Assembly (NCBI RefSeq): GCF_025024155.1
Contig: NW_026251711.1
Location: forward strand, 186,001-250,000
From: Gamsiella multidivaricata
Taxonomy: Eukaryota; Mortierellomycota; Mortierellomycetes; Mortierellales; Mortierellaceae
DNA length: 64,000 nt
Reading direction: 5' to 3'
The notes below the pieces were generated by a model. That model saw nothing but the letters and a program-made list of their open reading frames with translations, was not told where the DNA came from and did no database searches. This document shows positions 24,061 to 44,324 of this stretch, in pieces. Each line of letters begins with the position of its first letter. Positions within the stretch are counted from its first letter, which is position 1. The position numbers were made by a program, and so were the translations under genes.

Positions 24061-24139
24061 ACAGCAGTTGACAGCCGAGCAGTGTCGACTCTTGCATATC
24101 GTCTTTCAGTCAATTATATTATTATACATACAGTGTACT

Positions 24140-24245
24140 GGAGGCTCTTTTGAGTCCTTGCGGAGGCCGGGGGTATATGAAGGTAGACTTGTTGAACTTC
24201 AAACCAGCAGACGTCGACGAGGCATCCTAGTAGCCATGCTAACCA
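24140..24245 (+). pseudogene. Relic of the 3' end of an AIG1-like GTPase gene
   Basis: The DNA reads like the C-terminal module of the five GTPase genes downstream. GGGGTATATGAAGGTAG matches the GAGVYEGR codons, and a second block near 24192-24237 matches the FYSTY.P.EGEEAAL region with the intervening bases deleted. Stops and frame changes rule out function. It suggests the array once extended at least 3 kb to the left, or that a fragment was copied there. Confidence 0.45.
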
Positions 24246-24500
24246 TAGCAGATTGAGGTTTAATCCGCATAACTGCTCAAGAAGACGTCCATAGGTGGAC
24301 GATAGCTGGGTCCTGCGGTCAAGATTCTATTCTTCCTTCGTGCCTGCCTTGCTCTCAACATATACGTACTGTAGAATCGTTTCATTTCTGTCCAAGGTCC
24401 TTTCTGCATCAGTAAAAGTAAATGATATAAACAAAGCATTGCTAATGATCTAACTATCGTCTTTTCTTTGATACCTGGATGAGTGTCCCCACCATCGCTC

Positions 24501-26144
24501 CTACTCCCCGGCTGCACTGGCATCGCTATTTTCGATTTCGTCATTTTCGCTCTCGTCGTTTTCGTTTTCGTCGTTTTCGTTTTCGTCGTTTTCGTTTTCG
24601 TCGTTTTCGTTCTCGTCGTTTTCGTTCTCGTCGTTTTCGTTCTCGTCGTTTTCGTTCTCGTCGCTCTCGTTCTCGTCGTTTTCGTTCTCGCTATCCATGT
24701 AACTCACCAATGCTATAGATCTTTCCTTTAAGATTTTCTCCAGCTCTTCCCTCCTTCTGTTAGAGTGATGCACCCTTCCCTCGACACGCTCCAGCAACGG
24801 CCATGTTTCCACCATCCATCGGACGTCCTTCTCTTCCATCTGCTGCCACAACCCATCAAAACACAATCTATCCAGTAATTTCAAGCTGGACAGGATATCC
24901 AGTCCAGTTTCAAGCCTGAGATCGATTCCATCGTGAGAATCCCGCGGATCGAATTCGAAAGGCCCTACTGTCAAAAAGTCCAACTTTGTCATCCTCGCCA
25001 GCTGCTTCAGAACCAGCCGCTGCCACAGCGCCGGTTTTCCCTCCAGCCCATAAATATACAGCGTTAAGGATCGCAAGTTCATACAGATCCAGCTGTGTGG
25101 ATTGCACTCTGCTGCCCCGATAGCGGCTTCTCCATCCTCCGCGTCCAGTCCGAGAATGTCTCGAGCGTTCAGTGAATTCGCGCAAAGATATGTCAGCTCT
25201 GGGCAGGACGTCATGATCGTCTGGATCATCGGACTGGTCGCGCCGGAGCAGAGCCTGAGGTTGAGAGACGTTAAATGCGAAAAATGTCGCACGAGAGATT
25301 GGAGTGCACGCTGGCCGAACCCAGGCCCAAAGACAGAAAACGATACCATCCTTGGACAGCTATTCAGGATTTTGACGATATCCTTGTCCGGCAAGAGCCA
25401 ACCTCCCAGTTCCAATGATTCCAGAGACGGACAGAATGTGGAGAAGAGCTCACAAATAGATGTGGTCGGACATGGTTGGTCCTGGTTAGCGTACCATTTT
25501 ATCGACCGTAAACGGGGACACTTTTGGAACATCTGAAGTTGATTCTGCACCGACATGCCCGAGTCGATGTCGAGGTCGAAAACCTGTATCTGAGGAAACT
25601 CAGGCCACCTGTCCAATGAGCTGAGGTCGGCCATCACCCCTCCATTGATAACCAATTGTTCCAGTCGAACGCAAGTGTCCAGTAAGAGGTCAGTGCAGTT
25701 CCTGGATAGATTGGCGAAGTGGACGTCGAGTATCTTCAGGCGCAGGCAAGTAGATACCGCTAGCATGAAATCGTATGAGGGTTTGGTATCGAGCGCGCGC
25801 AACGTTATGCTCTGAAGGTTTGGGTTCCGAAGGACGAGGGTCGCGAGATCTTTCCAAGTCGTGGGGTCGTCGATCAAAATGAGGAAGTTAAGGTGTTCAA
25901 GACGCGTGCATGCCTCTGGGGAAAAATCTATTGGCTGGTCGTATAGGTGGAGGGTTCGGATGTGCTCGCTATTCGACTCAACGGCCTCTTTGCTGGGTGT
26001 CTTGTAATCGTCGGACCACTCGACGTGACGATATAAGAAGGGCGTGAAAGAAGCGTGCCAGTTTTTGCACACAGCGGCAGCTGAGGCGAGCTGGGAGTCG
26101 TCAAGGAACTGGGCTAAGTAGTCTCGAATCTCAGGAAGGTCCAT
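24501..26144 (-). CDS. F-box/leucine-rich-repeat protein
   Basis: A single exon of 547 aa. The N-terminus (about residues 1-45) is F-box-like: MDLPEIRDYLAQFLDDSQLA, then AAAVCKNWHASFTPFLYRHV, with the characteristic Trp. Irregular leucine-rich repeats follow (about 60-440), with segments such as CPSLESLELGGW, CPRLRSIKWY, HLTSLNLRLCSG and CPELTYLCANSL, the spacing seen in fungal F-box/LRR proteins. The last 50 residues are an acidic Asp/Glu/Asn repeat. F-box proteins are substrate receptors of SCF ubiquitin ligases; the target is not predictable. Three decayed relatives lie at 46-52.5 kb, so the gene belongs to a locally duplicating family. It has no introns, unlike most neighbours. Confidence 0.85.
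   Translation of the reverse strand: MDLPEIRDYLAQFLDDSQLASAAAVCKNWHASFTPFLYRHVEWSDDYKTPSKEAVESNSEHIRTLHLYDQPIDFSPEACTRLEHLNFLILIDDPTTWKDLATLVLRNPNLQSITLRALDTKPSYDFMLAVSTCLRLKILDVHFANLSRNCTDLLLDTCVRLEQLVINGGVMADLSSLDRWPEFPQIQVFDLDIDSGMSVQNQLQMFQKCPRLRSIKWYANQDQPCPTTSICELFSTFCPSLESLELGGWLLPDKDIVKILNSCPRMVSFSVFGPGFGQRALQSLVRHFSHLTSLNLRLCSGATSPMIQTIMTSCPELTYLCANSLNARDILGLDAEDGEAAIGAAECNPHSWICMNLRSLTLYIYGLEGKPALWQRLVLKQLARMTKLDFLTVGPFEFDPRDSHDGIDLRLETGLDILSSLKLLDRLCFDGLWQQMEEKDVRWMVETWPLLERVEGRVHHSNRRREELEKILKERSIALVSYMDSENENDENESDENENDENENDENENDENENDENENDENENDENENDESENDEIENSDASAAGE
24534..24692 (-). repeat. 15-nt coding tandem repeat (acidic tail of F-box protein)
   Basis: About ten copies of a 15-base unit encode Asp-Glu-Asn-Glu-Asn with minor changes (GAG/GAA and AAC/AGC swaps) in the last 55 residues. 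All substitutions keep the frame. On the plus strand the same DNA is open as an Arg/Phe repeat in one frame and a Val/Phe repeat in another, both regarded as shadows. Confidence 0.85.
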
Positions 26145-27268
26145 ATTGTTTGGTCGCTGGTATGTGAAAGCTGGCCAGAGATGAGGAGTGAGGACGATGA
26201 GGTGAATCGGATGAGGAATGAAGAGAATCGCTTTTGTGGCCGTGCCGCCAATCTGCTAAGGGCAACAATATATCAATTGAATCAATTGAGCAGGGTTAAA
26301 GATTGTCTAGTCATTGAACGAACCTTAATTGTCTCGACGCTTCACCTTGCATGTACTGGGCCATTAGACCATGAAGCAGACAGAGCAGGTAGTCAAGTAT
26401 AGGCCATTTTATGGTGCACATGGAATTAATGCACCACTGCAAACAAAGAAAAGTGATCGATTCATGTAGTTTGTATACTTATGCAGAAAAAAGCTGAATG
26501 GGAGATGGAGAGTGCGATGTTCCCTCGAGGCACTTTGTTCGTTCCTCTTGTGACAAAATAGGCGTGCGAGTGTAGACTATCTACAAAATGCTTGGCATTC
26601 TATGCAATCCTTGGTCCAGCAACATTGCAGGACCGAAAGCAATACAAGGCTGTACAAGAAAAAAAAAAGAAGGGGATGCATGTTTGTGCTTCGCCCTGTG
26701 CACAGATGATCTTTCAGGAAGATGAATGTGGCGCTTTGTTCGCGTTGAACAAGCGCGTATAGTCCCTTCGCCTCCCGGCAGTGGTGAATGGCCATGTCGC
26801 TTCCAGATATAAAGCCAATGGCCTTGGCTCTCCTTACCTACAACACCTTCATCTCCGACTTACTTACCACTACACTAGCACGCCCACTCAGCCCGGCCTG
26901 CCAAATCCCTAACCTTTATCGACCGGTGAGTAGCACGTCCATGAACGCCTCTTGGATGTGGAGATACTCAAGTGACTGAAGCTTGGAACTGCCATGGGAC
27001 TCTCGTTGCGCAAAATAGCATCATAAGCACCCTCAGTACCTTACGCGCCATCATCGAAAGCGGCGGATATATCTTCACCATTTGGCACTACTAGTGCGAG
27101 TGTACGTATATGTATCCGCTGTTGAGCTCGCATTTTGTTGTGTTCTTTTGCTACTTTTCCTTTGTACTCATTGCCAGTATAATCGCCGTCTAGTCGGCCT
27201 ATCCTAACGTTGCAGCAAATAGTGTCCGCTCCCTTGTGTAGCTTGATCCAGTCGGCGACCAAGGCTAC
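26145..27268 (+). other. Upstream region of GTPase copy 1, including a duplicated block
   Basis: From about 26680 to 27391 the sequence is alignable by eye with 42025-42649 upstream of GTPase copy 5. Shared landmarks include GTGAGTAGCA (about 26924), CATCGAAAGC.G.GGATA (about 27054), ACTAGT.CGAGTGT (about 27089) and CTGTTAGAAACGACA (about 27345). A likely untranslated first exon ends at the GTGAGTAG donor near 26925. Between, a segment could encode about 23 residues similar in both copies, but no start codon precedes it. Confidence 0.55.
26684..26694 (+). promoter_or_regulatory. Shared upstream motif TGTGCTTCGCC, copy 1
   Basis: The exact 11-mer occurs upstream of GTPase copies 1, 2, 4 and 5, in each case about 160-245 bases before the first predicted donor site. 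It is a candidate core promoter or factor-binding element for the array. Confidence 0.45.
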
Positions 27269-29003
27269 ATGCACAGATTGGCTTCAGAGGAGGGGTGAGC
27301 GAGAAGCCGTGTGCTATTCAGTTAATGGGTCTAGTGCTCTGTATCTGTTAGAAACGACAGTTAGACTGACCGTAATCCTTTCTCTTGTTAGGTCCGTGAC
27401 GAACCCGCCGATCTACATCAAGGAAGCACCTCAAACGCCAGATTTCATGCCAGGTGTTCCTATTTACAACATCCTCCTCTTCGGGCCACGACGGTCCGGT
27501 AAAAGCACCTTTCTTGAAGCGATCAAAACATATGCAGATTCAAGCTACCAGATCAACTACGGGGCTCTTGATGCCTTTCGCAGAGCAGATTTACAGGTTG
27601 AATCGGTTGAGACTGACTTTCCTGAATACCGACTGCACTTAAAGAAGCCCAATTCGCAACTAGAGGCTTTGCGCGATGAAGCCGATATCACATCGTTCTT
27701 TAATCCAACACCGGGCATAACTGTCGAGACTATTAAGGGAGATTCTAAACTTCCGAAGAGCGTCCTCCGCATCTTTGACACCCTTGGACTGGATGACACC
27801 GACAGCCATGACGAGGCAAACGTCGCCAAGATCCTTTCCAGACTCTCCAATGTTGAGTCTATTCACCTCGTACTTATCTTTATATCTCGACACACGGCTC
27901 TAACATCTGAGCTTCAGTCGACATTGAAAACCTACCGCAACATTTTCTCGGCTATGGGAAGCCTGCTCGCTTTCGTCCACACCAAGATCGATCTCAGAGA
28001 TCAGTACCTTAAAGACGAAAATCTTTGGAGCCATATCGAGCAAAAAAAAGGAATCTTGGGTGCGACCATGGGCCGCGACATCCCGCACTATCTCATCGAC
28101 TGCGAACTAGACGAGATACGGCCCGCATATCTGTACCTCAGACAACTGAAAATTCGCCAGACACTCCTTCTCGCAAAATTCAACGTACCCGTCCCTATGC
28201 ACAACTTACAGGTGACCAAGACCCCGAGGATGACGGAGATCGACAATTTGGTCATCCAGAAATCCAAATGTAGGCTGGCAGAGATCGAGAAGGCCACGTC
28301 TCCAGCAAATCCGAACATCTGCAATGTCGACTCTAAAATCATCAAGACCCGATACGACATTCGAGAGCATGAGGAGTACATTCGAAACCACAATACCGAC
28401 GATGTAGAGCTCATTCACGAGGCCTATTTTGAACAAGCCTGGCACCTTTTTTCCAAGCGAGATGAGGCAAGACTCAAAGCAAAGCATCTTGACGATACCA
28501 TCGACGACATCCGCGTGGAGCTCTCAGGGGTAGAGATCAAGAAAGAAAGTGGGGGTAAGGGCTTCAACTATTGGAGCGTGAGACTCATCAGAAAGCATTA
28601 CATGAACGGGACTTTCCATGCCAAGCTGTACACCACGCGGCATAAAAAGTATCGTCAGGAGTTATGTGAATGGGATATCAAACTTGATGGCGCGAAAACA
28701 ATTTTGGAAGGCTTGCATCGCGAGCGGAAACTCTTGGATAGTGCGGATATAGGAGATGACGCTACCCAGGTTCAAAGGCAGCAGCTATCGGCAGACCAGA
28801 GTCGGTATTGGAACATTATTACCCGTGCATCTCGTCTTGCGCTTCATCTAAACCTATTCAAGGCCATTGTGGAGGCTGGAGTTTATGAGGGACGCCCTGT
28901 AGATTGTGTGCAAAAAGTCATCGATTTTTATTCAGTCTACAGACCCATGGAGAGTGAAGAGGCAATTCTGAGACCAGATGAGTCGCAGCCGGAGGCGCCG
29001 TAG
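27269..29003 (+). CDS. AIG1-like P-loop GTPase, array copy 1
   Basis: Two coding exons (27269-27294 and 27392-29003) give 545 aa. The small first exon (MHRLASEEG) is matched by a homologous exon in copy 5, with the same phase and the same 31 residues from the junction to Walker A. The G domain spans about residues 35-270. Walker A is GPRRSGKST instead of the GQTQAGKST of the other copies, and switch II reads DTLGLDDT instead of DTPGLxDT. G4 is TKID. The C-terminal half has a charged helical segment with an EEYIRNHNTDD motif, the module with FNYWSVRLIRKHYM, and the conserved end LNLFKAIVEAGVYEGRPVDC. The G domain recalls AIG1/GIMAP and septin-like TRAFAC GTPases, which often act as membrane-bound scaffolds. 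Role unknown. The altered Walker A and switch II may change nucleotide handling. In the aligned upstream exon copy 1 has a TAG where copy 5 has CAG. Confidence 0.8.
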
Positions 29004-29922
29004 TCTACATTAGTTCTCGAATGGTGGACACGCAACATCCTCATTCTGCGGTCGGTCCGCTTTCTTTGATATCGAAACACATTAGTTGTCAGCAATAAAT
29101 ACGAAATCACGCAGCAGTACATTGGCGGGAATGAGCGGAATATGTGGCCATGTGGATCTATGGATCAGAGCGCTGATTACATAGCCTTGAGCATGAGTAT
29201 GGCCTCGACCGCATCATCCATAGCTTACTGAATTGCTTCTGTGCTGTTTTGATAACCCTTTCTTATTCTATTCTTCCAATATGCAACTGAGGGGTTTGCG
29301 CATAGTCTTGCACATGGCTACTACGAACCAAAAACGATAAAGCAGGCAGTGTCGATAACTCTCATGGCAATTGATGGCATTGATGCACATCTACAAATAC
29401 AGGAAGCGGCAGCAAGGTTAGTTCATGGACTTTGTTTTTTAAAAGAAGGCCTATGCTCCAACCAAGATGACCATTTGGCCACATACTACGCCAAGACCGA
29501 CACGAAGAGAGAGTGGGCGCCCGAATAGCAGCAAGGGTAAAATGGGAGACACTCTGATATTCCCACATTATCCCACAAGATACCGCCTTTGTCTTTATTC
29601 GATGTTTTTCATGGGAAACAGATGTGACATTATGCATATACAGGAAGCTTGGCAATTCATGCGGACTGGAGTCAAACAATACAGCATAATCAGAAGGGGT
29701 TGCAGACAGCAATGGAGATTTGAGAGTATTGGTATGTGCTTCGCCTTTTCAATGCGGTTCTTGCCATGGGCAAGGACTAGTAAACCCTTCCCTCGCTACC
29801 GCTGGTACGGACACAGAATATAATAGCGTGCGGAGTCAACGGCTCCCCCTTTTTTTTATTAGCAGCGCTTCTCGCCTTCAACTAGTCTCAGTTTCCATCA
29901 ACTTGATCATCTTTTGCCGAAA
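29004..29922 (+). other. Intergenic and leader region between GTPase copies 1 and 2
   Basis: No gene recognised. The last 190 bases carry the shared motif and a CT-rich leader ending in the first donor of copy 2. Confidence 0.45.
29735..29745 (+). promoter_or_regulatory. Shared upstream motif TGTGCTTCGCC, copy 2
   Basis: Exact match to the motif before copies 1, 4 and 5. It lies about 180 bases before the predicted split start codon of copy 2. Confidence 0.45.
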
Positions 29923-32348
29923 TGTGAGTACGCCATCCGAAAGAACGATTTCGCTTAAGAAACCGGCCATTAAGAAGGGCTCTGTTAACCAAACCATGGC
30001 TTCTGGAATAGGTCTGAGAAACTTTCCCGCCGCGCTCTAGAAGACTCACACACCCGAAACGGCGCCGTAGTCACATCATACGATCATAGTCCTCCAGAGG
30101 CGATCGATCCCAGCTGTGATGGCGGGCCTCCAAAATACTGCCTAAGTGGGCCCAAAACGTACGTTTAAATTCATTCCTTTGAAACTTTTCCTATTCATGA
30201 GACGCAAAAGCAAGGAGGACTATGGCTTAAGATTTTCTGCTGTGCTTTTACAACATAGCGAAAATGAATCCACAGCCTACGGGCGACTGGCGTCTAAAGC
30301 TGCGGGTGAAAATCATCCTATAGCGCAGCCGGTCCAAACGTATGTACTACCTTCGCTCACGTCTATGCCTAGTACCATAGCTGATCATGTTGAAAGGATG
30401 GTCGAGTAACCCTCTGTCTTTTTTTTTTTTTTTTTTTTACTGCAGAAATGAAGCAAACCACTGCTCTTTTGCCTGGCCCAACTCAGTTCGTACCGATGGC
30501 ACAAATGCCATGTATAGCATGGGTCATGAGCAGGCGTAAGTACCAAGCCATGTTCCCCATTCAGCGCGGCCGATGAATACCACCTAGTTATGAGAGAAGC
30601 TCTATTTGTCAACGGTTGCTGGTTACTCTAGGCTTACATTCCAAAGCTTTACCCGTAGTGGAAAAGCATCTCAAACGCCGAATTCGGACTCTGTCGTGCC
30701 TACCTACAACATTCTTCTCCTCGGACAAACACAAGCCGGGAAGAGCACCTTCCTCCAGGCGATCAGGGAATATGCTGACCCGAACTGCGAGATCGACCAA
30801 GAATCCATCGGGAGCGGCAGCCGTTCTTGTACCACAGAGGTTCGAACTCAAGAAGTTGAGATAGATTTTCCGGAGTATAGTCTTTACGACACCAATCCTT
30901 CTCTCTACTTCAATCCCACACGTTATAAGGGCACCTTCTTTCTCTCACAGGATACGCCAGTAGAGAAGGAAGTAACCGTTGCGGATCTTCTCGGCTGTTC
31001 TAACCACAAGCAATACAAGCAAAAGATTGACTATTATGATTACGATCTTCGCAGAGACAAGCCCTCTCACTTACCAAAAAGCAAGATCCGCGTCTTTGAC
31101 ACTCCTGGACTGAACGACACCAGTAGCCACGATGAGAGGAACGTTGCGAAGATCCTCTCCGCACTCATCAACGCTGGATCTGTTCATCTTGTGCTTATCA
31201 TGATCGCTCGACAAACGCCACTGACCATGGAGCTCAAAAATGCACTGGAGACCTACTACAACATCTTCTCAGCTATGGGAAGCCTGATCACGATTGTTCA
31301 TACAAAAGTGGATTATAGAAGTCAACATCACGAAGACCATCGTGAAATGGATTTTTTTAAGGAGAGGAAGACCGAACTTAGGAAAATTATGGGTCGGGAT
31401 CATTTGCACCATAAAATCGATTGCAATTTGGAGGAGGACCGACTCGCCTACAAATACTTGAGGCTACATACGATCCGAAAGCTTCTTCTCCAGGCAGTAT
31501 CCAATATACCCGTTCAACTGAGCAACATGCAGCTCTGTAAGACGCCCAAGATGATTGACATTGATGGATTAATCCAGAAGGAGTTCAGGGACAAGTTGAA
31601 GAGAATCGCAAAGAAAATCCCCCGGATCAATAACGCCATCAAAACTTCGAACGAGGCGGCCATCTGTGATGTCGACAGCAAGATCACAGAGATCAAATAC
31701 GAGATTCGTGAGATAAAAGAGTTTATAAAGAACAACGATACCGAGGATCTTGAACTCAGCCATGAGGCCGAGTATCAAGAGAATTGGAGATTATTTGGGT
31801 ACCGGCAGGAACTGAAGCTCAAGTCACCGGATTTCGACTACACTATTGACGACATTCATGTGGAGCAGTCCAAGATCGAGATCAGGGAGAGCAAAGGAGG
31901 CAAGGGTTATAAGTTCTGGAGCGTGAGATTGATGAGGGAGCCTTACCAGTACGGCACCTACTACGTCAAGCTATATGTCAAGAGGTCCAATATGCACCGC
32001 CATGAGATCCGCAAGAGGAAGATCAGGTTGGATTACTCTGAAGCGATATTGAAGGGGCTGATTCGGGAGCGCGAGCTATTAGGAAGAACGGACATGGGAG
32101 ACAAGGACAGGCTAGCTCAGAGACGCCAGTTGTTGGCAGAGAAGAATATTTGCTGGAATATGATCACTCGAGCGCAACGGAACACTCTTCATCTGAACCT
32201 GTTCAAGGCCATTGCAGATGCTGGGGTGTACGAAGGTTCGTCTGCGGATTGCACCCAGAAGGTCGTGGAGTTTTATTCGACCTACAGACCTACAGAGGGC
32301 GAAGAGGTGGCCTTGAAGCCGGATCAATCACGTCAGCGGGAACCATAG
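29923..32348 (+). CDS. AIG1-like P-loop GTPase with N-terminal extension, array copy 2
   Basis: Five coding exons are predicted: 29923-29924, 30012-30158, 30259-30339, 30446-30535 and 30632-32348, for 678 aa. The first holds only AT of the start codon; the G comes from exon 2 (MSEKLSRRALED). All four introns interrupt a codon after its second base, so the reading frame is continuous with no stop over about 105 disordered N-terminal residues. Walker A GQTQAGKST is at about 138-146, switch II DTPGLNDT, G4 TKVD. The C-terminal part has the EFIKNNDTEDLEL helix, KFWSVRLMREPY and LNLFKAIADAGVYEG. Core exon confidence is high (0.9). The upstream exons are inferred from phase and from parallel structure in copy 4. 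If they are wrong, the protein could start at the Met near 30512 (MYSMGHEQ). Confidence 0.72.
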
Positions 32349-33416: not shown

Positions 33417-35259
33417 ATGCCTATCGCCCTTGGCAGGTTCCTGGGAGAGCTGGCGCTCATTGTGGTCCTGGAATGGCTGAGAAGATGGTACACTTTCAGA
33501 CTACGTCCAAATATGATCGGCACGTACATCCTCTCGCAGGACTCGCCTCCGGGAGGAGAGTACAGAGGACCCATGACGTGAGTACAGCTACCGATGCTAT
33601 CGATGCTCGTCTATTCAAAGATATTAGTATCTCACATACATATGTTTATTGCTCTATTTCGACAGCAACCTCAGCAATAAATCACCGCCTGTTTACAATA
33701 TCGTCCTCCTTGGACAAACTCAAGCTGGGAAGAGCACCTTTCTTCAAGGCGTTCGCAGATATGCAGACCCAGCTTGTGAAATCGACATCAGCTCTATCGG
33801 AGGCGGCAATCAATCTCATACGTCAGAAGTGCAAATGCAGCAAATCGAGACCAGCTTTCCCCTGTACCGCGTTTACGAGGCCGAGGAAGATCAAGACCAA
33901 TCGGCCTCTCCACATCCCACCCGAGAAGTTGCCATGGAGTCGCTTCTTCGAGGGTGCGCCATCAGAGAATATAAAACCAGAATCGATCGAATGGACAACC
34001 TGGTTGCTCACAAGGACAAGCATTCCGTGTATCCCGAGTGCCTCATCCGAGTCTTTGATACTCCCGGACTGGAGGACACCAATTCGTACGATGAGAGGAA
34101 CGTTGCAAAGATACTCACGTCCCTGTCAAGCGAAAACGCCGTTCATCTTGTCCTCATTGCGGTCTCGAGCGGCAATCCATTGACACCTGGGCTTGTAGAA
34201 GCGCTCAAGACGTATTCCAAGATATTCTCGGCCATGGGTGGTCTATTGGCCATCGTTCACACGAAGTTCGAGTACAGAACTCAACATCCGGACGACAAAA
34301 AGACCGTGGCTTTCATGAAGGAAAGAGCCGCGGACTTGGACAGGATCATGGGCAGGAATATGACTCATTTCATGCTCGACTGCGACCTTGACGAGGACCG
34401 ACCCATTCACATCTATCTTCGACAAACGACTATCCGCAATATTCTCCTCGCGGCAACACATAATACTCCCGTGGCTCTCAACACAATGCAGCTGTACAAG
34501 ACCAGTAAAATGCAGGACGTGGATGCTCTCACAGCAAGACAGCAAAGCCAGGTGAAGGCGGACCTTGAAGAACAGAGAAGACACATGGAGGAGGAACAGC
34601 GTAAACGCTTGGCGGATGCCAGTGATCTGGAGAGAAGGATTAATGAGACCAGGGGCCGTATTCGAGGACTGGATGTATTCATTAATAAGAACGAGACTGA
34701 CGAACTAGTATCTATGCGCGAGGAGAGATTTGAGAATGGCTTTAACTTCTTTGCGATTCCACAGGAAGTAGAGCTAAAGGCCTACGACCTGCCATACAAG
34801 ATCGATCATGTCGAGGTGCATTGTGATGGAGTTAGAGTTTTGCATCAGGATGGAGGATACGGCCACCATCATTGGTATGTCAAGTTTGTCCGATTCTGGC
34901 ACATGCATGGCATCTACCATGCCAAGCTCTTCGTCAAGCGGCGTAACAAGATGCACCAAGAAATTAATCAGACAAAGGCCGAGCTGGAGAGATGCAACAG
35001 GACGAAGGACGACATGATCTGCAGGCGGTCTGAAATAATTGCGACGAACGAATTCCTGAACGGACCGTACGGGGTGCGACGAGAACTGGAGCAGAAACAG
35101 GGTGTTTGCTCGGAGATAATTGCACAATGCTCACGCGAGACGCTGACCTTGGATCTGTTCAATGCCTTGGTGAAAGGAGGAGTGTATGAGAACACGCCTG
35201 CCGAGTGTATGGACAAGGTTTCGGCATTTTATGCGGCCTATTCTCATGCAGAGGCCTAG
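33417..35259 (+). CDS. AIG1-like P-loop GTPase with hydrophobic N-terminus, array copy 3
   Basis: Two exons (33417-33577 and 33666-35259) give 584 aa. Exon 1 is unlike that of the other copies. It encodes a short hydrophobic stretch (FLGELALIVVLEWL) followed by basic residues, which could be a membrane anchor or signal anchor. Walker A GQTQAGKST is at about 70-78 and switch II is DTPGLEDT. The G4 position reads HTKFEY, so the Asp that confers guanine specificity is Glu. The middle has a Glu/Arg-rich coiled coil longer in character than that of the sisters (QRRHMEEEQRKRL). It ends with HHWYVKFVRFWHMHGIYH in place of the WSVR module and LFNALVKGGVYENTPAEC. This is the most divergent of the five, yet fully open. 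Confidence 0.85.
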
Positions 35260-35381
35260 AGGGTTCGATTTGGCCATTGCTTTACGGCGCACCGTGTGCT
35301 TTTGTTTGAGCGCGAATGGTTCGTAGTTCCTCAATAAATAAAAAAAAATAGGGGCGAGTATCAGAGGCACTGCGGATGTGC

Positions 35382-35392
35382 TGTGCTTCGCC
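35382..35392 (+). promoter_or_regulatory. Shared upstream motif TGTGCTTCGCC, copy 4
   Basis: Exact copy of the 11-mer, about 155 bases before the predicted split start codon of copy 4. The flanks carry a purine-rich run (AAAGAAAGAAAGAAAAAG). Confidence 0.45.
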
Positions 35393-35545
35393 AAGAAACA
35401 AATTTCCCCTCCCGCCGCGGTAAAAACAAAAGAAAGAAAGAAAAAGAAGAAAAAGGCTATTTTATAAAGCCTGAAGAGTGAAGTGTACGACAATTTCTAC
35501 AGCCTACCATCCTCTTTCCTCACTCACTTACTTTCCTTTGTCAAA

Positions 35546-38037
35546 ATGTAAGTAACCCATACCTCGATATGCTTGACTACAGCAGGCCATGAGAAGGACC
35601 CACAGTAACCATGTCACGACAATTGATGCAGGTTCGATGCAGTACAGGATATTACTCCAGACGTGCATGGAGCACAATCCCAGACCGAACATGAGGCTCT
35701 GAACGAGTCAGAAGAGTAGGTGGGAGGTCGAATTTCTTACATCATCGGCGCCAAAATCCATGATCTCCTGGTGATTAATGCGATCACATCGAACCTCAGA
35801 AACGAAGTAGTTCATGCCCTTCAAGGCTTTACACTGGTCTCGCAGGACGACGGGTATGCAATTGTAGTCGCGGCAGATGAATCTGACAGTCCTTCAGAGA
35901 CGGTCATAGCTGATACCGATGCCATGCTGTACGTTTTACCTCATGCCAACCGTATGATTTGTGATGCTGGAGCAATGTGAAAGCGAGCTTCAAACCTAAT
36001 ACTGTCCGACATGCGCACTTCTTACACAGCGTACAAGCGCTCGCAGGCTTTGATGAGGCGACCTTGAAAGCAGCGGACGATATCCCACTCTCTCAAACGT
36101 AAGTGCGCTTTTTATCCAATATCCTTCTGATTCTTGCAATGACATTAGCAACTACACCGAGTAACCCTCCTCGTCTCTCGATATAGAAATGAAACGCTTC
36201 AATGACTTGACCTGGTTGATTCTGATCGTACAAATAAGCGCGATGCCGCACACAGGTCAGTTCCGGACTAGGAGTAAGTGACGAACTACATCGTACTGCC
36301 CAGGATTTAAGACCGTGTCTCTGCCTGATGGCAAGCTCTAATGGCCATCGGTCTGTTCAATGCTGTAGAACTGGAGAATTCTTTACGACCTACAACAAAG
36401 AATTGCCTCAATTACCTCACACCCCATCCATCACTTCCACCTACAATATCCTGCTCCTCGGTCAGACGCAAGCAGGCAAAAGCACCTTCCTTCAGGCCGT
36501 TAGGCGCTATGCCAATCCGAACTGCGAGGTCGACTTTGGGTCCATTGGGAGCGGCAACAGCTCTCATACGACAGATGTGCGCACTGCGACAGTTGAAACC
36601 AACTTTCCAGAGTATCGACTCTTCGATACGTCCGCCCCTAACCGACTCAACCCAATGCAATACATGCATGTGCCTTTTCAGTCCCAGGACGGACCAGTCG
36701 AGAAGGAAGTGACATTCACAGATCTCTTTAGCGGCCCAACTCTCCCGATGCACAGGCGTAGGCTCAATCGCGAAGATTATAGCCTTAACCCAGAGAGGCA
36801 CTCTTATTTCCATAATAGCAACGTTCGCATCTTTGACACACCTGGCCTCAATGATACCAATGGCCATGACGAGAGGAACGTCACCAAAATCCTTTCCGCT
36901 CTTTCCGGTGCTGGGGCTGTCCATTTAATTCTCATCATGATCGCTGGAGGTCCACTCACGCCTGAACTCCAGTCGTCATTGAAGACTTATTCCAGGATCT
37001 TTTCGGCTATGGGGGGTCTTCTCGTGTTCGTTCACACCAACATGAGGTTCGATGACCAGCACCCCAACAACCCCAGGCTTACAGCATTCATCAACGAGAG
37101 AAGGAGCTCCCTGAGGGACATCATGGGCCGCGATATCCCTCATTTTTTCATCGATTGCGACCTCGACGAGGACCGACCCGCTCACTTGTATTGCAGACAA
37201 CGCATCATACGTCACCTCCTCCTAATTGCAAGAATGAACGAACCCGTCCCTCTGAGCAACATGCAACTGTACAAGACGCAAAAGATGATTGAGGTGGACG
37301 AACTCATTGCTAAGGAATATCGAGCAAAGCAGGCTGCAGTAGAGAAGGAAATGTCGCAGGCCGACAAGAGGGTTCGCGAAATCGACATCAGGGTCAATAT
37401 TACTCGATACAACATCCGGGAGGTAGAGGAGATCATTCGCAATTACAACACCGAGAATCTTGAACTAATTCACGAGGATCGATTTGATGAGGATTGGAGA
37501 CTCTTCTCCTTTCGACAAGAAGCGGAGCTCACGGCTGCTAATCTCGAGTATACTATCGACGTGGTTCATGTGGACGAGTTTGGCATCGAGACCAAGGGGA
37601 CCGAAGGAGGTGTAGGGCACAGAAACTGGAGCGTGCGACTGATCAGACAGTCCTTCAAGTACGGCACTTACCACGTCAAGCTGTATATCAAGCGCTGCAA
37701 CAAATATGCCCAAGAAATTAAAAACTGGAAGAGAACGTTGGAAAGCCAGAGGACGGTTTTGGAGTCTGAACTGCAGGAGCGCAATAGCCTGGTCAGTACG
37801 GATGGAGGAGAGAGTGGCGTCAGGACTCAGAGACAGCAGCTTATGGAGAAGCACAACCAGTGCCTAGACATGATCGCCCGTGCATCTCGTTCTACTCTAC
37901 ATCTGGACCTTTTCAAGGCGCTTGGGGAAGCTGGGGTCTATGAGGGTCGACTGGTGGATTGCATGCAAAAGGCCACGGAGTTTTATTCGAACTATGTTCC
38001 TGGCGAAGGCGAAGAAGTGTCACTAATGGCCATTTGA
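35546..38037 (+). CDS. AIG1-like P-loop GTPase with N-terminal extension, array copy 4
   Basis: Predicted coding exons are 35546-35547, 35632-35715, 35800-35928, 36030-36098 and 36369-38037, for 650 aa. As in copy 2, the start codon is split AT|G and every junction is after the second codon base. The roughly 95-residue extension (beginning MFDAVQDITPD) is acidic and not similar in sequence to that of copy 2. Walker A GQTQAGKST is near residue 126 and switch II is DTPGLNDT. The G4 region reads HTNMRF, losing TKxD entirely. The C-terminus keeps NWSVRLIRQSFK and LDLFKALGEAGVYEGR. The exon that corresponds to exon 4 of copy 2 is visible at about 36187-36257 but has an in-frame TGA, so it is taken as skipped inside a 270-nt intron. 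The core exon is secure. The extension is moderately supported; an alternative start is the Met at 36328. Confidence 0.68.
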
Positions 38038-38555
38038 TATTTAGTTGCCGGCACCCTGGGCTAAACGACTGGCTGAAGATCTGAGCTTGAGGCCAGCAAA
38101 ATTTGCATTCTATAGTCGAAAATACATTCATTCCGATGTTCCTTTACGTATCCACCTCACGACAATCTCAGTTTCGGCCCTTTAAACAGCCTTCACCCCC
38201 TAAAAGTGTTACTCAGCGTTGCGTAATAAATGCTAGTCAGTGGCTCGCGATTGCAAAGTTGCGGTACAAGGTAAAGATGTGAGTGAGAGTAAAAGAATGC
38301 ACACTCATGAGATATCGAGTGGGACAGCGACATTCAACTCTGTTGTGGATGCTATATAGTATGCTCTGAGACTAGCAATAGCTCGCCGGTGTTCCATAAA
38401 CCGCTCCTATTAGAGGAAATGGCACACATTTTGCTCGTCAGCTCATGCCCCTTTTTTCAGATTGTTTTCTACACCGCTGCTAATTGCTGAGATGGTCTCA
38501 AGTCAAAGAATGGGCGCGCGTTGATAACTTTATCGTATTTAAGCTCTGTTCCTGA
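38038..38555. other. Intergenic after GTPase copy 4
   Basis: No gene, repeat or element recognised. Confidence 0.4.
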
Positions 38556-39321
38556 TCAAAAGGCTGTGCATTGGTTCCCGCCACAATCGAATCCTCTACC
38601 AATACTGTCTTTATCGCCCAAGCAATGGTTATGTTGATAGCTATACTCGATACGATACGTATTTTGTAGCCTGCTATCGATCGTCGGCGCCCGTCGAAAG
38701 AATGCGTTGAAGAACGATTGGCAACCGTACTTGGTCGATGGCTTTCTCATCCGTGTCTTCCCGGAGACCCCACCTTGCTGTCTTTCTTTATGCTCGTCCT
38801 TTGCTCCTCTGCAGTGACAATTATAGCGAGCCTTGAGCTGATCGGCCCTCTCCTTCTTGACTTGAGAGCTGCTAGGCCGTACGTTGGTATATGCGCGATG
38901 TTTGGCGTTGAGTGTGAACTGGGTGCCAATGCAGTTCTGGTGCCGCGCCTTCCAGCCTTCGAAAAAAGCTGCCTTGAGGTAGAACACCAGCCTTCCTTTC
39001 CCGTCGCGGGCTATTCACTCTTTCTCTGCAGTATCAAATGCCTCAGCTGTCTCAAGGATGTACGGGTCGAATAGAGTATTTCTCACAGTGTCCCAGACTA
39101 GGGGGCGGATTTTCTCTTCCAGGTGGGCTTTCCTTTTTGCTAATGATTCAGCGTCGCCTAGGAGTTCTCCGGCATCCTCAGCACCATTTAGATCGCGTCC
39201 GCCCTCGGTCGCGTCCGCCCTCGATCGCAGAATCATCATCGCTTGCCTCTGGGTCGTCCTCGTCACCTCTGTTGTCTGCAGTGGGATCCTTCAGGGAATT
39301 ATCTTCGGCGGGTTGGTCCAT
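38556..39321 (-). pseudogene. Broken gene with WRKY/FLYWCH-like zinc cluster, probably transposon-derived
   Basis: Read on the minus strand, an acidic N-terminus (MDQPAEDNSLKDPTADNRGD) runs into a 16-bp tandem duplication that shifts the frame. Beyond it the ORF continues (LNGAEDAGELLGDAESLA) to an in-frame TGA at 39015-39017 and then on without change of frame to 38556. The C-terminal part has CHCRGAKDEH, KYGCQSFFNAFF and YRIEYSYQHNHCLGD. That is the Cys..Cys..His-x-His pattern of WRKY-GCM1/FLYWCH/FAR1-type DNA-binding domains found in Mutator-like transposases and proteins derived from them. No transposase domain follows. Two independent lesions make it a pseudogene, unless the duplication is an assembly or strain polymorphism. 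Confidence 0.6.
39193..39224. repeat. 16-bp tandem duplication
   Basis: TCGCGTCCGCCCTCG occurs twice in direct succession with one extra base per unit. Removing one 16-bp unit restores the reading frame of the pseudogene above. Confidence 0.85.
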
Positions 39322-39790
39322 TTTGGTTAGACGATGTAACTGGGTAGTCCAGGCACCAAGAAGAAAGTGTCGCTAGATAGGGAACGTTATTATACAAGAG
39401 CTCAGGATAGAGAGGTTGTTGATGAAATACCAGAGCATTTGCTGGAGCTCTCAACGAGTCATCTAACTGCCCCTATGCCAGTGCCACTGATGGGTTAATG
39501 AGGTTAATGGGGCTGTCATCCGGTGTGCTCATGGCTACAGGTTCAAGTCTGGGAGTGTGGTTTAGTATATGTTTATTAGACAAAGACTCAGGTTCTATCA
39601 ATTGGCAGCGGTGCTCTTAAATTGTTATGTCTGTGCGGGTACAGATCATAGTTCAAACTCGTTGTACTAATTCAGGCGATCATTAATTTCCACACGTTTT
39701 TCGCGTTTTTCTTTTACTCCTCAACCTCATCCACACTCCATCCTCATCCCCTATCCCACTGTTCGTCCTTCCGTTCCTTTTCACTTAGTA
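39322..39790. other. Intergenic, leader of small ORF
   Basis: No feature recognised until a CT-rich stretch at about 39705-39785 that looks like a fungal core promoter or leader for the small ORF at 39791. Confidence 0.4.
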
Positions 39791-40150
39791 ATGCTTGCAG
39801 AGGTCAGATCCCTATTAATCAGCCCATTCGTAGCCCATATACGGTTCAAGCTTGATCCAGATACTACCTCCCAGCACATCATTACTCCCACAATCGATGA
39901 CCACCCGGCATTAGAACATCTGAGCGATGATGGGTTGTTAGAGATCACTAGCATGCGTATCATCCAAGAGCCTGTTTTCATGGACAGCCTCGAAAGGCCT
40001 AAGCTATTTATTAGACTCGTTATATCCGACCGGACAGTTGCATCCATGATATCCCACCCTTATGACTACATCCCGGCTGTCAGCGTGATGATGTCTATGC
40101 GCCATAGTATCATGATGAACATTACGAGCAGCTACGAGCAAGGCTACTAG
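39791..40150 (+). CDS. Small hypothetical protein
   Basis: An open frame of 119 codons starts 10 bases after a long CT-rich leader of the type seen before other genes here. The product (MLAEVRSLLISPFVAHIRF to SSYEQGY) has no recognised domain, signal or membrane segment. It is rich in Ser, Ile, Met and His. No intron is needed. It could be a real short gene, a fragment or a chance ORF. Confidence 0.35.
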   Translation: MLAEVRSLLISPFVAHIRFKLDPDTTSQHIITPTIDDHPALEHLSDDGLLEITSMRIIQEPVFMDSLERPKLFIRLVISDRTVASMISHPYDYIPAVSVMMSMRHSIMMNITSSYEQGY

Positions 40151-40481
40151 CTAACCTTCTATCCCCATCATACCCTTTCATAAAATACATGGTTTCATCC
40201 CATCCCTCATCCCTGTGCGCTATTATGAAGTCTCCATTAGTCGATACAGGTGTTGAGTGATGAGACGCGTGATGAGACGGGCGGTGATGAGATGCGAGTG
40301 ATGAGCCGGGCGATAAGTGATGAATGTGATGAGACGACTTGTGTTGGAGGGGAATCATGGAGATATGGTATTTGGACGACAACGACGCTCCTTGGTTCAG
40401 GAAACTGCCAGGAGTCTCATGCTTTATCCTCGAATGAAGTCTCGCGCCTATTCACCGTCCAAGTCCGACAATAATGACAGC

Positions 40482-40507
40482 CAAAAAAAAAAAAAAAAAA
40501 AAAAAAA
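40482..40507 (+). repeat. Poly-A tract
   Basis: An uninterrupted run of about 26 A in intergenic DNA. It could mark the 3' end of an old retroposed sequence, but no source gene or target-site duplication is seen. Confidence 0.85.
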
Positions 40508-42030
40508 GTAACAAGTCCAGTCCATTCGGTCCTTGTCATGATAAAGGTGCGATGGCGCTTTTTCTAGTAGAAAGCGAGAGCCAGAATGCTCCACGATCTT
40601 CTCCTGTGGTTGTAATGTTGAAAGATTCGGTGAAAAAACCAGCACAATCTCACAATGGATATACCAGAAAACTAGAATCAACCCCTGTGGCTGACAAGTA
40701 CAGGGCCCCTATAACTGTTATCAACACAGAGTCGCGGCAGCCGCAATATCTTGCAGGCATCGCCCTCGGAGCCTGCACATATACAAGGACCTGAGACTGA
40801 CCCATCAACCTTGAGATTTTGCCGCTCTCATCCCAGCAGCGCCTTCACGAGCAGCAGCACCATCACGAGCAACGGCGTGTACCTGAATACAGATCTCAAA
40901 TGCTGCTCACACTGAACTCACCTCCTTTGGCCTATAGGGCCAGCCCCAGTTGGTTGTTGCGGTGACAAACAACTATGGCGACAATGAAGAGCAGGCCAGG
41001 CAGTCCGAGATCGAGATATAAAAGCAATAGCGGAAGGAGCGTGAGAAGGTGGGGCAGTTCAGAATAGAGCGGCGGCGAAAGATAGGAGCACTTTGCAATC
41101 AGCAACAACAGCAACAGTAATAAAACGACACCCATATTGCATCTAGAGTGGATGGCGCCATGAGATTGTGCACATGAGCATGAGCTGTTATGTTGCATCC
41201 TGGTCGTTGAACATTGAACACATTTTTGTTCCGGAGATCAAAGACCGCCAGCTGAAACTGACAGTTGAACGTGTATATAAAATGCCATTGAGTGCTTACG
41301 TAAAGTATTAAACAACGACCACCCTTGACAGATCTTACCGTACGCGTCCCTAACCGCAATACTGCAATTATATGTGGTCCCGTAATGAGTGGCGTGGACG
41401 AATGAACTACGACGGAGCTCGAGAGAAGGTCGGAAGAAACCAAGAAGAATATCCCTCTTGTCGACGTGGCTATTTACGAGATCGAATCCATGATTAACGA
41501 GACACAGTTCTACGCGGGAGGGAAGTTTTTACGCAACTAACACACCAACAATTTGGAGTTCGACAGGAGCGGAGCCAAGGCACCACGATTTATTATACCA
41601 CTGACGATTTTTGCGTGGAGAAAAACCGGACAGAAAGGAGTAGAGCTATGAGGCTGATCATCATCCCCAACCGCGTCCTGTTCATGGCTCCCAGCGCATA
41701 TCATAGTCTATGACGACATTTTTTTTTGTTTATCCACTGATCGCCCCCCTTCCCATTTTAATGCGCCCTGCAAACACAGAAAGCGGGAAGTCAGAAAACA
41801 GTGGGAGATGTTGCATGAGGGACATTGCGATGTTCCCGCGTCGTGCTGCCCTCACCATTTTCCATCGCTTTGGTCAGAGAACCAGTACGTGTATATTTAT
41901 TACCCAGATGCGACCAAAGAGACTACATACGTAGGACCTATACAGACCAATGTATGGTGCATAACCACTGTTCGAATGATCCAGTCACTCAATGGTGGCC
42001 CAAAATGCGGTGACGGGAATACAGCAATGC

Positions 42031-42041
42031 TGTGCTTCGCC
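42031..42041 (+). promoter_or_regulatory. Shared upstream motif TGTGCTTCGCC, copy 5
   Basis: Exact copy of the 11-mer. About 180 bases downstream is the GTGAGTAGCATG donor that matches the first donor of copy 1. Confidence 0.45.
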
Positions 42042-42529
42042 ATCAGCACAGATGACAGGTGACCCTTCGGGAAGATGATTGTGGTTATCACCATACAAAC
42101 ATAAAATCAACAGCCATCCATAACACATCTTGTCTTTTGCTTACTTACCACCACACCAGCGCACCCACTCTGTTTAGTCCTCCAGGTTCCTAACTTCTTA
42201 ATCTTTGACGACGGGTGAGTAGCATGTTTATTGATACCTTTTGATTGTGGGACATGTTCAAGCGACTGAAGCCTAGAGCCAACGTGACACTCTTATTACT
42301 CAATTAGTGGCATAGGAGTTCCCAGTATCTCACACGCCAGCATCGAAAGCAGTGGATACACCCCCATCGTTTGACCCTACTAGTACGAGTGTGTGTATGT
42401 AATCACTTTTAAGTCTGACTTTTTAGTGTGTTGCTTGTTTTAATGCCGTCTAATCGGCTCCACCCTAATGCTGTGCCAAATAGCATCTCGATCCTTGTCC
42501 AGCCTGATTCAGTCGGCGGCCAAGACTAC

Positions 42530-44324
42530 ATGCGCTTACCGACCTCAGAGAAGGGGTGAGTGTCAAGTCGTACTACTCAAGTAATGAATCCAGAGCTCAG
42601 TATCTGTTGGAAATGACAATTGAACTGACAATTTTTTTTCTTTTGTCAGGTTCGCAACGAATCCGCCGGTCTACGTCAAGGAAGCACCTCAAATATCAGG
42701 TTTCATGACAGAGGTTCCTACCTACAACATCCTCCTCCTTGGCCAGACGCAAGCAGGCAAGAGCACCTTCCTTCAGGCCGTTAGGAGCTATGCCAATCCG
42801 AACTGCGAGCTCGACTCTGAGTCCATTGGGAACGGTAACAGCTCTCATACGACGGAAGTTCAAATCCAAACAGTCGAGACCAACTTTTCCGAGTATCGAC
42901 TCTTCGATATGTCTACCCCCCATCGATCCAACCCCATGCAGTTCATGCAAGACGATCCTGCGGAGCGGGAAGTCACCTCGGCGGATTTTCAAGACTGTGC
43001 AACTGTCATGCAATACAAGAGGAAACTCGATTGTGTCGATGGCTACGAACTCCGTTGGGACCAGTCTTCTCAGATTCCATTAAGCAAGATCCGCATCTTT
43101 GACACTCCTGGATTGAACGACACCAATGGCCATGATGAAAGGAATGTCTCCAAGATTCTTTCCGCGCTTTCCAGCGCTGGGTCTATCCACCTTGTGCTCA
43201 TCTTGATCGCGCGTCAAACGCCCTTGACTCTTGAGCTTCAAGCTACATTGAGGAACTACTCCAACATCTTTTCAGCTATGGGCGCTCTGATTTCGTTCGT
43301 CCATACGAAGGTGGATTTCAGAAGCCAGTACCAAAGTGATAGGACTTTTACGGCATTTATTCAAGAGAGAAAGACATGTTTGAACAGGATTATGGGACGC
43401 AGTGTCCCGCACCATTTCATCGATTGTGATCTAGAGGAATACCGACCTGCGTATCTATACTTCAGACAACAAGCCATCCGCCGTCTCCTTCTCTCGGCAA
43501 GGATGAACAGGCCCGTCTCTTTGGGGAATATGCAGCTCTACAAGACGCAAAGGATGATCGACGTCGATGCACTCATCGCTATGGATTACAAGAAGAAGCT
43601 CGCGGAAGTCAAGAACAAGATGTCTTTTGTCAGCAGTGCCATCGGCAAAATCGACTACAGGATAGACGAGACCCGATACGATATCCGAGAGCTGGAGGAA
43701 TTTCTCCGCAACAATGATACCGAGGATCTCGAGTTAATCCACGTGGCGTCTTTTACACAACATTGGGAGTGGTTTGAGCTTTTTGGCTCTCGACAAGAAG
43801 CAGATCTGAGGGCACCGGATTTTGATTACGCCATTGACGAAGTCCGTGTGGAAATGTCCGGCATCGAGATCAAGGAGACCAGAGGCGGCAAAGGTTGTAA
43901 GAGTTGGAGCGTTAGGTTGCTCAGACACCTGTATAATCACGGCACCTATCACGCAAGGTTATATGCCAAGCGGAGCAAGGCACGCGCCGAGGCGATCGGT
44001 GACCACAAGGCCAAGCTCACTCGTACTACTAAAACTTTGAAGGACCTGATTCATGAGCGCGACAGTTTGGATAAGGCGGATTCAGGTGAAGATGGGACGC
44101 CTGGGATGAGACAGCAATTGGCGACTGAGCACAACCAATGCCTGGACATGACGGCCCGTGCCTCTCGCACTACGCTTCACTTGAATCTGTTCAAGGCCAT
44201 TGCGGAAGCTGGGGTGTATGAGGGCCGGCCTGTAGATTGCGTGCAAATGGCTGTCGATTTTTATTCAACTTACAAACCCGCTGAAGGCGAGGAGGCCGCC
44301 TTGAGGCCGGGTCGGTCGCATTAA
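42530..44324 (+). CDS. AIG1-like P-loop GTPase, array copy 5
   Basis: Two coding exons (42530-42555 and 42650-44324) give 566 aa. The first exon (MRLPTSEKG) and its phase match copy 1. The G domain is canonical for the array: GQTQAGKST at about 40-48, switch II DTPGLNDTNGHDERN and G4 HTKVDF. A helical segment (FLRNNDTEDLEL), the SWSVRLLRHLYN module and LNLFKAIAEAGVYEGRPVDC complete it. The reading frame is also open upstream of the chosen Met for about 20 residues (ending SVGGQDY), so a further 5' coding exon is possible, but no start codon was found for it. Like its relatives it lacks a membrane segment. Function is unknown. It looks the most intact of the five and is a good reference for the family. 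Confidence 0.85.

What the first reader, a model, noticed from the sequence alone, without database searches (positions are those of the whole stretch)
24140..44324. Local array of five AIG1-like GTPase genes with an undescribed C-terminal architecture
Five complete same-strand paralogues (27269, 29923, 33417, 35546, 42530) and one relic (24140) lie in 20 kb. Each joins a P-loop GTPase domain (GQTQAGKST, DTPGLxDT, TKxD) to a charged helical segment with a NNDTEDLEL-like motif, a beta-rich WSVR module and a terminal FKAIAEAGVYEG module. I know of no named family with this whole arrangement. GIMAP/AIG1-type proteins in animals and plants are often clustered, fast-evolving and tied to immunity, so a role in defence or self-recognition is a reasonable hypothesis, but it is inference only.
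Basis: partly seen in the sequence, partly recalled or inferred. Interest (0 to 1): 0.85.

Follow-up and report, generated by a model that had tools for sequence, protein, structure and literature searches.

The report
Expanding fungal GTPase gene array
A soil fungus carries a cluster of related genes for GTP-binding switch proteins whose second half matches no catalogued protein domain that we could find; they look like a lineage-restricted, duplicating family, possibly used in defence or self-recognition, but no function has been shown.

Summary
A sixth intact copy ends about 10 kb left of the window; no other intact copy was found in the 37.5 Mb genome. The host matches Gamsiella multidivaricata. 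Named relatives are all Mortierellaceae; four have no named source. Five of the six copies form a Gamsiella-only clade. Synonymous sites are saturated and dN/dS is 0.13-0.27 (12 of 15 pairs computable): selected genes.

'AIG1-like' is half right. G3-G4 matches AIG1, but G1-G3 spacing is about 107 residues against 41-43 in AIG1 proteins, and the G domain matches bacterial dynamin-like proteins at least as well. I file it under neither. The C-terminal half (helices, six-stranded beta module, helical hairpin, terminal helices) has no convincing Pfam or PDB match.

Defence is a hypothesis. Circumstantial support: the contig is rich in NLR-type genes, and truncated 5' copies of the gene lie head-to-head with three of them.

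The parts
24138..24195 (+). 3'-end relic of a GTPase paralogue (remnant of the ...FKA(L/I)xEAGVYEGR... end, frame broken)
   Evidence: Local DNA alignment to genes 4 and 5, scores 42 and 41 against shuffle maxima 32 and 34 of 300
27269..29003 (+). Gene 1: exon 27269-27294, intron 27295-27391, exon 27392-29003. GTPase motifs degenerate (GPRRSGKS, Arg at the aligned switch-I Thr site, DTLG) but G4 TKID kept: possible GTPase-dead paralogue
   Evidence: (P0008 deposited model)
30606..32348 (+). Gene 2, core open frame; G1-G4 motifs intact; the only one of the five over the Pfam AIG1 cut-off in my scan (35.5 bits)
33649..35259 (+). Gene 3, core open frame; the divergent member, groups with Entomortierella beljakovae and Dissophora ornata proteins
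36328..38037 (+). Gene 4, core open frame; G4 altered (HTNMRF)
42530..44324 (+). Gene 5: exon 42530-42555, intron 42556-42649, exon 42650-44324 (layout by homology to gene 1); G1-G4 motifs intact; used for the structure models
42705..43514 (+). Gene 5 G domain (residues 1-270)
43548..44321 (+). Gene 5 C-terminal half (residues 282-539): long helix, six-stranded beta module (about 341-424, GG...W...R...G), helical hairpin, terminal helices with FKAIAEAGVYEG
   Evidence: Separate model pLDDT 87.7, pTM 0.65; no Foldseek match with E 0.001 or better
26859..27485 (+). 5' region of gene 1 shared with gene 5 (about 42140-42742): flank/UTR 69%, intron 73%, exon 2 before G1 81% identical, dropping to 57% from G1 on
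24501..26144 (-). Flanking F-box-like/LRR gene, divergent from gene 1; member of a separate dispersed family
   Evidence: F-box-like at 22.6 bits, just under its cut-off of 24.3

Best explanation
A Mortierellaceae family of about 540-residue multidomain TRAFAC-class GTPases that duplicates in tandem. Shown by sequence: a G domain with intact G1-G3 in most members, a variable G4, and a C-terminal half of a kind not found elsewhere. Inferred mechanism: GTP loading makes the G domains pair face to face, as in septin/GIMAP/Toc34 and dynamin-type GTPases, and the helical and beta modules link the paired units into a scaffold on a membrane or target. Copies with damaged nucleotide motifs (genes 1 and 4) act as regulatory partners in hetero-oligomers. 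Inferred role: a cell-autonomous response to foreign nuclei, microbes or endosymbionts, working beside the NLR repertoire, because the family expands per lineage, varies between species and lies on an NLR-rich contig. The G-domain class and the evolutionary pattern are shown. Assembly and the defence role are inference.
For: Six intact copies in one 56-kb stretch and no other intact copy found in the genome. Purifying selection, dN/dS 0.13-0.27 in 12 of 15 computable pairs with saturated dS. Gamsiella-only clade of five, SH-aLRT 99. Two or more members apparently on one contig in nine other assemblies, read from equal contig lengths and locus tags. Tandem fusion P0052 and dual-GTPase P0047. 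Fold matches to Toc34/GIMAP G domains. NLR-rich contig: 8 of 46 ARM_5 loci on C104, 6 of those 8 followed by NACHT. Truncated 5' copies head-to-head with three of these ARM_5 genes. Rhizophagus Aig1 gene up when two isolates coexist (PMC7490403, passages).
Against: No expression, biochemical or genetic data. dN/dS shows no diversifying selection. The intact array itself is not next to an NLR gene: nearest ARM_5-NACHT loci lie about 32 kb left of the sixth copy and 60 kb right of gene 5. The NLR enrichment was tested after the fact (P 4e-4 with 50-kb clusters as units), and another contig (C137) holds more ARM_5 loci (9) although no family match was found there. Only 13 of 40 rows keep Arg at the site I recall as the GIMAP catalytic arginine. 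The Rhizophagus gene was not shown to be an orthologue; its authors interpret it as a mating response.
Confidence: 0.38

Rival explanations
1. A dynamin-like membrane-remodelling GTPase: G domain, helical stalk and a beta-rich tip (in place of a PH-like tip) that assembles on and deforms membranes, with no special role in defence.
For: G1-G3 spacing median 107, about as long as in dynamin-like proteins (85-104 in 7 of 8 distinct proteins measured) and unlike AIG1 (41-43 in 25 of 25). Profile match to dynamin-like proteins 96.6 over 188 columns against 83.3 over 109 for AIG1. First Foldseek row by E-value is BDLP 2j69, though at TM 0.22. PADLOC LeoBC/LeoA models match the G1-G2 region of four of five. 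Both bacterial loci retrieved are dynamin-like. Precomputed Pfam gives Dynamin_N for 12 of 51 hits.
Against: No window protein passes the Dynamin_N cut-off. The AIG1-dynamin control scores higher (109.5) than either test, so such scores do not discriminate within TRAFAC. Toc34/GIMAP head the structural second look. The bacterial dynamin helical domain PF21808 is not among the families matched by 51 relatives.
Confidence: 0.25
2. A developmental or mating-related GTPase family (spore formation, hyphal fusion, septation), expanded by tandem duplication without an immune role.
For: Purifying selection. Presence in nine Mortierellaceae genera with lineage-specific copies. Rhizophagus Aig1 listed among putative mating-response genes (PMC7490403, passages).
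Against: Copies often group by lineage rather than as stable orthologues; degenerate paralogues are kept. Neither point excludes it.
Confidence: 0.22
3. A decaying gene cluster propagated by segmental duplication with little function.
For: Relic at 24138-24195. Truncated 5' copies at three C104 sites and one C112 site.
Against: Six intact frames at saturated synonymous divergence with dN/dS 0.13-0.27; family maintained across nine genera.
Confidence: 0.05

Closest known systems
AIG1/GIMAP/Toc34 GTPases (PF04548)
   Different: G1-G3 spacing about 107 against 41-43 in 25 of 25 bacterial AIG1 proteins. Four of five window proteins are under the Pfam cut-off in my scan. No strongly hydrophobic stretch in the C-terminal 260 residues. 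Extra C-terminal half with a beta module.
Bacterial dynamin-like proteins / LeoA (PF00350, PF21808)
   Same: Long G1-G3 spacing, G1-G2 similarity, G domain followed by long helices.
   Different: No window protein over the Dynamin_N cut-off; PF21808 not among the families matched by 51 relatives; beta module in the C-terminal half.
Glomeromycotina AIG1 proteins with a Hint domain
   Same: AIG1-type GTPases expanded in another early-diverging fungal lineage (PMC8778642, passage).
   Different: Those carry a Hint domain. No window protein showed a Hint match, nor is Hint among the 22 families matched by 51 relatives.
Fungal NLR proteins (ARM_5-NACHT) of the same genome
   Same: Same contig; also a multiplied family.
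   Different: Different nucleotide-binding domain; no NACHT match in the GTPases.

Membership tests
AIG1/GIMAP | Pfam AIG1 (PF04548) score over the curated cut-off | tested here: inconclusive
   1 of 5 window proteins passes (gene 2, 35.5 bits against 27); the others score 14.8-25.7; three of five pass the generic MMR_HSR1 cut-off. 43 of 51 relatives match AIG1 at E 0.01 or better. Precomputed Pfam of a later version lists AIG1 for 18 of 51, genes 2, 4 and 5 among them.
AIG1/GIMAP | Compact G1-G3 spacing of about 41 residues | tested here: not met
   Median 107, range 58-127, in 38 of 40 family rows against 41-43 in 25 of 25 bacterial AIG1 proteins with both motifs. That eukaryotic GIMAP/Toc34 share the short spacing is recalled, not tested.
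AIG1/GIMAP | Conserved G3 to G4 stretch of AIG1 proteins | tested here: met
   Profile alignment of columns 118-233, E 2.3e-11; not specific, since AIG1 and dynamin-like profiles match each other better still.
AIG1/GIMAP | Catalytic arginine between G3 and G4 (site recalled for GIMAP7) | tested here: inconclusive
   Arg in 13 of 40 rows, gap in 16; the site was placed by motif, not by a structure alignment.
Dynamin superfamily | Dynamin_N (PF00350) over the curated cut-off | tested here: not met
   16.1-23.8 bits in the five against 27. Some relatives do pass: P0047 and P0052 of 7 scanned, and precomputed Pfam gives 12 of 51.
Dynamin superfamily | Extended G domain with long G1-G3 spacing | tested here: met
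   Median 107 against 85-104 in 7 of 8 distinct bacterial dynamin-like proteins measured (150 in the other; two more not measurable).
Dynamin superfamily | Stalk / bundle-signalling helices of dynamin type | tested here: inconclusive
   PF21808 not matched by 51 relatives; my own dynamin-like profile reached only 330 residues past G1; long helices predicted. Topology not compared in coordinates.
Dynamin superfamily | Assembly-stimulated GTPase and membrane binding | not testable with these tools
   Needs biochemistry.
Septin | Septin domain (PF00735) | tested here: not met
   No septin row for the five window proteins at E up to 1; 2 of 51 relatives match at E 0.01 or better.
NLR | NACHT or NB-ARC domain with repeats | tested here: not met
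   No such row for the five at E up to 1, nor among the 22 families matched by the 51 relatives.

The most novel reading that the evidence does not exclude
Mortierellaceae have evolved their own immunity-GTPase system, comparable in genomic behaviour to animal GIMAP/IRG genes but built on a G domain intermediate between the AIG1 and dynamin types and a C-terminal module of new fold. It pairs active and GTPase-dead paralogues and acts with a large ARM_5-NACHT NLR repertoire in non-self or endosymbiont control.
Probability: 0.2. Interest if true: 0.78.

Novelty: new variant of a known kind. Interest (0 to 1): 0.47.

Why it matters
To my knowledge fungal innate immunity is mostly studied through NLRs of Dikarya. 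A clustered, lineage-specific GTPase family in an early-diverging lineage that carries many NLR-type genes gives a concrete, deletable locus for asking whether fungi use immunity-type GTPases as animals and plants do. The C-terminal half is also a candidate new domain family and a target for structure work: 54 homologous proteins are in hand, one member is modelled with good confidence, and no convincing solved relative was found.

Tried and rejected
The family profile over 30 genomes of one bacterial order gave one weak G-domain match (E 6e-5, 1 of 30). The viral-contig scan gave 17 pattern matches and no relative.

Single-family label for the G domain: a first AIG1 profile of 4 sequences was too thin. 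With 27 sequences the scores are 83.3 (AIG1) and 96.6 (dynamin-like), but AIG1 against dynamin-like gives 109.5. Such scores cannot settle membership; I rely on spacing and cut-offs. The dynamin-like profile had 9 rows, two of them the same protein (L031, L035).

Diversifying selection: not seen, but dS is saturated and no site test was run.

F-box genes as constant partners of the GTPase: the F-box-like neighbour belongs to a dispersed family with at least 60 matches genome-wide, so its presence here is not special. A short frame in the dispersed repeat that looked F-box-like by eye had no tblastn match to the window's F-box gene there and no Pfam match. My notebook entry calls it F-box; that was by eye and is withdrawn.

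Left boundary of the dispersed repeat: I first took it for the end of a mobile unit. One search shows that the 174-kb and C112 copies go on alike past it, so it is only the point where the 428- and 721-kb copies part from them.

Rows dropped: A3 used 35 of the 51 hits plus the five window proteins; P0008 in it is the deposited model of gene 1, so gene 1 counts twice. The tree (quick method, SH-aLRT only) has 50 rows. P0002 was cut to its second unit; P0052 was meant to be cut but went in whole, as a tandem fusion. P0008, P0021, P0022, P0047, P0051 and P0053 were left out. The long branches of P0050 and P0049 are unsure.

Papers: searches. I read passages only, no whole paper. In those listings I saw no paper describing this family; most subscription papers are not held.
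Full report
Host. The window lies in a 782,570-base contig (C104) of a 37.5 Mb genome. P0003, P0004 and P0008 lie on a contig of exactly that length; P0003 and P0008 are named BC939DRAFT proteins of Gamsiella multidivaricata, a Mortierellaceae fungus.

The array. Five open frames of 536-597 codons lie on the + strand and align at 42-59% identity to gene 5. Searching the whole genome with gene 5 gave eight matches: the five, an intact sixth copy at C104:174474-176054 (ending about 10 kb left of the window, 57% identical), and two short 5' fragments at C104:430040 and C104:722790. Searching with a distant relative (P0036) gave the same eight places. Both searches score only their best candidates. 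What was found is thus one 56-kb cluster plus debris. The relic at 24138-24195 stands above shuffles for genes 4 and 5 (0 of 300 each), not for gene 3 (202 of 300).

Gene models. The deposited model P0008 confirms a short first exon (27269-27294) and an intron (27295-27391) in gene 1, and gene 5 can be read in the same layout. Between genes 1 and 5 the 5' flank (264 of 380 ungapped, 69%), the intron (69 of 94, 73%) and exon 2 before G1 (76 of 94, 81%) are alike, while identity falls to 57% (43 of 75) from G1 on. Over the coding region gene 5 is closer to genes 2, 4 and the outside copy (dN 0.30-0.33) than to gene 1 (0.40). This mosaic would fit exchange or conservation of a 5' cassette. But the tree groups gene 1 with genes 2 and 5 (95) on a long branch, so shared descent with a fast gene 1 is also possible; I did not test which.

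Selection and history. Pairwise dN/dS is 0.13-0.27 in the 12 of 15 pairs that could be computed, with dS at 1.5 or above. These are old duplicates kept by purifying selection. In a quick tree of 50 proteins, genes 1, 2, 4, 5 and the outside copy form a Gamsiella-only clade (SH-aLRT 99), while gene 3 groups with Entomortierella beljakovae and Dissophora ornata proteins (98). So at least one ancestral split predates these genera and the rest looks like lineage-specific expansion. Three protein searches found 54 proteins in all (51, two more, one more), five of them this genome's own. Every named one is from nine Mortierellaceae genera; four (P0014, P0023, P0034, P0053) have no named source, and P0053 is distant (E 2.8e-22). 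Candidates must share exact words with the query and in two searches only the best 8,000 or so were scored, so absence elsewhere is not proven. In nine other assemblies two or three members seem to share a contig, as read from equal contig lengths and neighbouring locus tags in the tables.

AIG1 or dynamin? I built comparison sets from prokaryote genomes: 27 AIG1 proteins and 9 rows of dynamin-like proteins. G1 Lys to G3 Asp is 41-43 residues in 25 of the 25 AIG1 proteins where both motifs were found, 85-104 in 7 of 8 distinct dynamin-like proteins (150 in the other), and median 107 (58-127) in 38 of 40 family rows. Profile alignment: family against dynamin-like 96.6 (188 columns, from G1 past G4), against AIG1 83.3 (109 columns, from G3 past G4), and AIG1 against dynamin-like 109.5. 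PADLOC LeoBC models match the G1-G2 region of genes 2-5 (E 6e-7 to 4e-11). The G domain is thus a TRAFAC GTPase that meets neither family's criteria in full.

The C-terminal half. Folded alone with the same relatives it reaches pLDDT 87.7, pTM 0.65: a 55-residue helix, a six-stranded beta module, a helical hairpin and two terminal helices. Conserved sites include Lys280, Met284, Asp288, Gly394, Gly395, Trp401, Arg407, Gly413, Phe496 and Tyr505. In the Pfam scan of 51 relatives, the families matched by more than one member are all GTPase or P-loop families; the rest are single-member matches. Foldseek has nothing at E 0.001; VIA's best rows are helical chains. A search drawn from residues 282-539 alone found 9 proteins among 4,454 candidates, all family members. 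It is undescribed in these libraries; a new fold is not shown.

Surroundings. The 1.26-kb stretch upstream of the outside copy recurs at C104:721642, C104:428909 and C112:353147 (86-87% identical), with a short piece at C104:595794 on the other strand. These repeats end 9-37 codons into the GTPase gene. At the three C104 sites the repeat lies head-to-head with ARM_5 genes: 717391-718440 (-, one stop inside), 424687-425742 (-) and 598013-599053 (+). The first and last are followed by NACHT; for the second no NACHT was listed. ARM_5 loci number 46 after merging 53 matches, 8 of them on C104, which is 2.1% of the genome (C137 has 9); counting 50-kb clusters as units, 5 of 31, P 4e-4. The test was made after seeing the data and assumes independent clusters. 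Work on fungal NLRs reports a helical N-terminal domain, with Linnemannia (Mortierella) elongata named as richest in these proteins and homologues in its bacterial endosymbiont (PMC9815663, passages), and 26 N-NACHT NLRs in Entomortierella parvispora (PMC12258605, passages). That ARM_5 is this helical domain is my inference.

Reading. The most likely account is a lineage-specific GTPase family that works by GTP-controlled assembly, with some members as inactive partners. The best guess at its use is a non-self or microbe response, since clustered, expanding AIG families have been linked to immune challenge in snails and corals (PMC7053062, passages; PMC3723955, listing only), and since a Rhizophagus gene annotated Aig1 rises when two isolates share a root (PMC7490403, passages). 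The step from pattern to function is not shown. Dynamin-like membrane work and development or mating remain open.

Noticed in passing
C104:173213-174473, 428909-430039, 721642-722789; C112:353147-354294; C104:595794-595850 (L018, L020, L021, L013, L015): A dispersed repeat carries the upstream region and the first 9-37 codons of the GTPase gene; only the copy at 174 kb continues into an intact gene. To the left, the 428- and 721-kb copies part from the 174-kb and C112 copies at one common point (L020:1488).
   Followed up: partly
C104:424687, 598013, 717391 (L020, L021): ARM_5 (NLR-type) genes lie head-to-head with the truncated GTPase 5' copies, suggesting that NLR duplication carried along the start of a neighbouring GTPase gene.
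   Followed up: partly
window 24501-26144 (-), 46077-47012 (-), 50124-50318 (-), 51095-51202 and 51931-52359 (+): F-box-like/LRR gene and broken relatives beside the GTPase array; at least 60 family matches genome-wide.
   Followed up: partly
window 24499-24708: 15-base tandem repeat coding an acidic Asp/Glu/Asn tail at the end of the F-box-like gene.
   Followed up: no
window 26859-27485 and about 42140-42742: The 5' non-coding region of genes 1 and 5 is more alike than their coding regions from G1 on: possible cassette exchange or a conserved regulatory block.
   Followed up: partly
P0052 (1081 aa), P0002 (861 aa), P0021 (823 aa), P0047 (867 aa), P0028 (788 aa): Tandem fusions or longer versions of the GTPase in other Mortierellaceae; some may be merged gene models.
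   Followed up: partly
P0053 (595 aa, source lgn): Distant relative of unnamed origin with G1/G3-like motifs and no Pfam match at E 0.1, so the family may reach beyond fungi.
   Followed up: no
window 33649-35259: Gene 3 was not itself among the 54 proteins returned, although genes 1, 2, 4, 5 and the outside copy were.
   Followed up: no
L009:2363-3072 and window 49125-49852: A 70%-identical repeat of unknown kind shared between the window and the 430-kb site.
   Followed up: no
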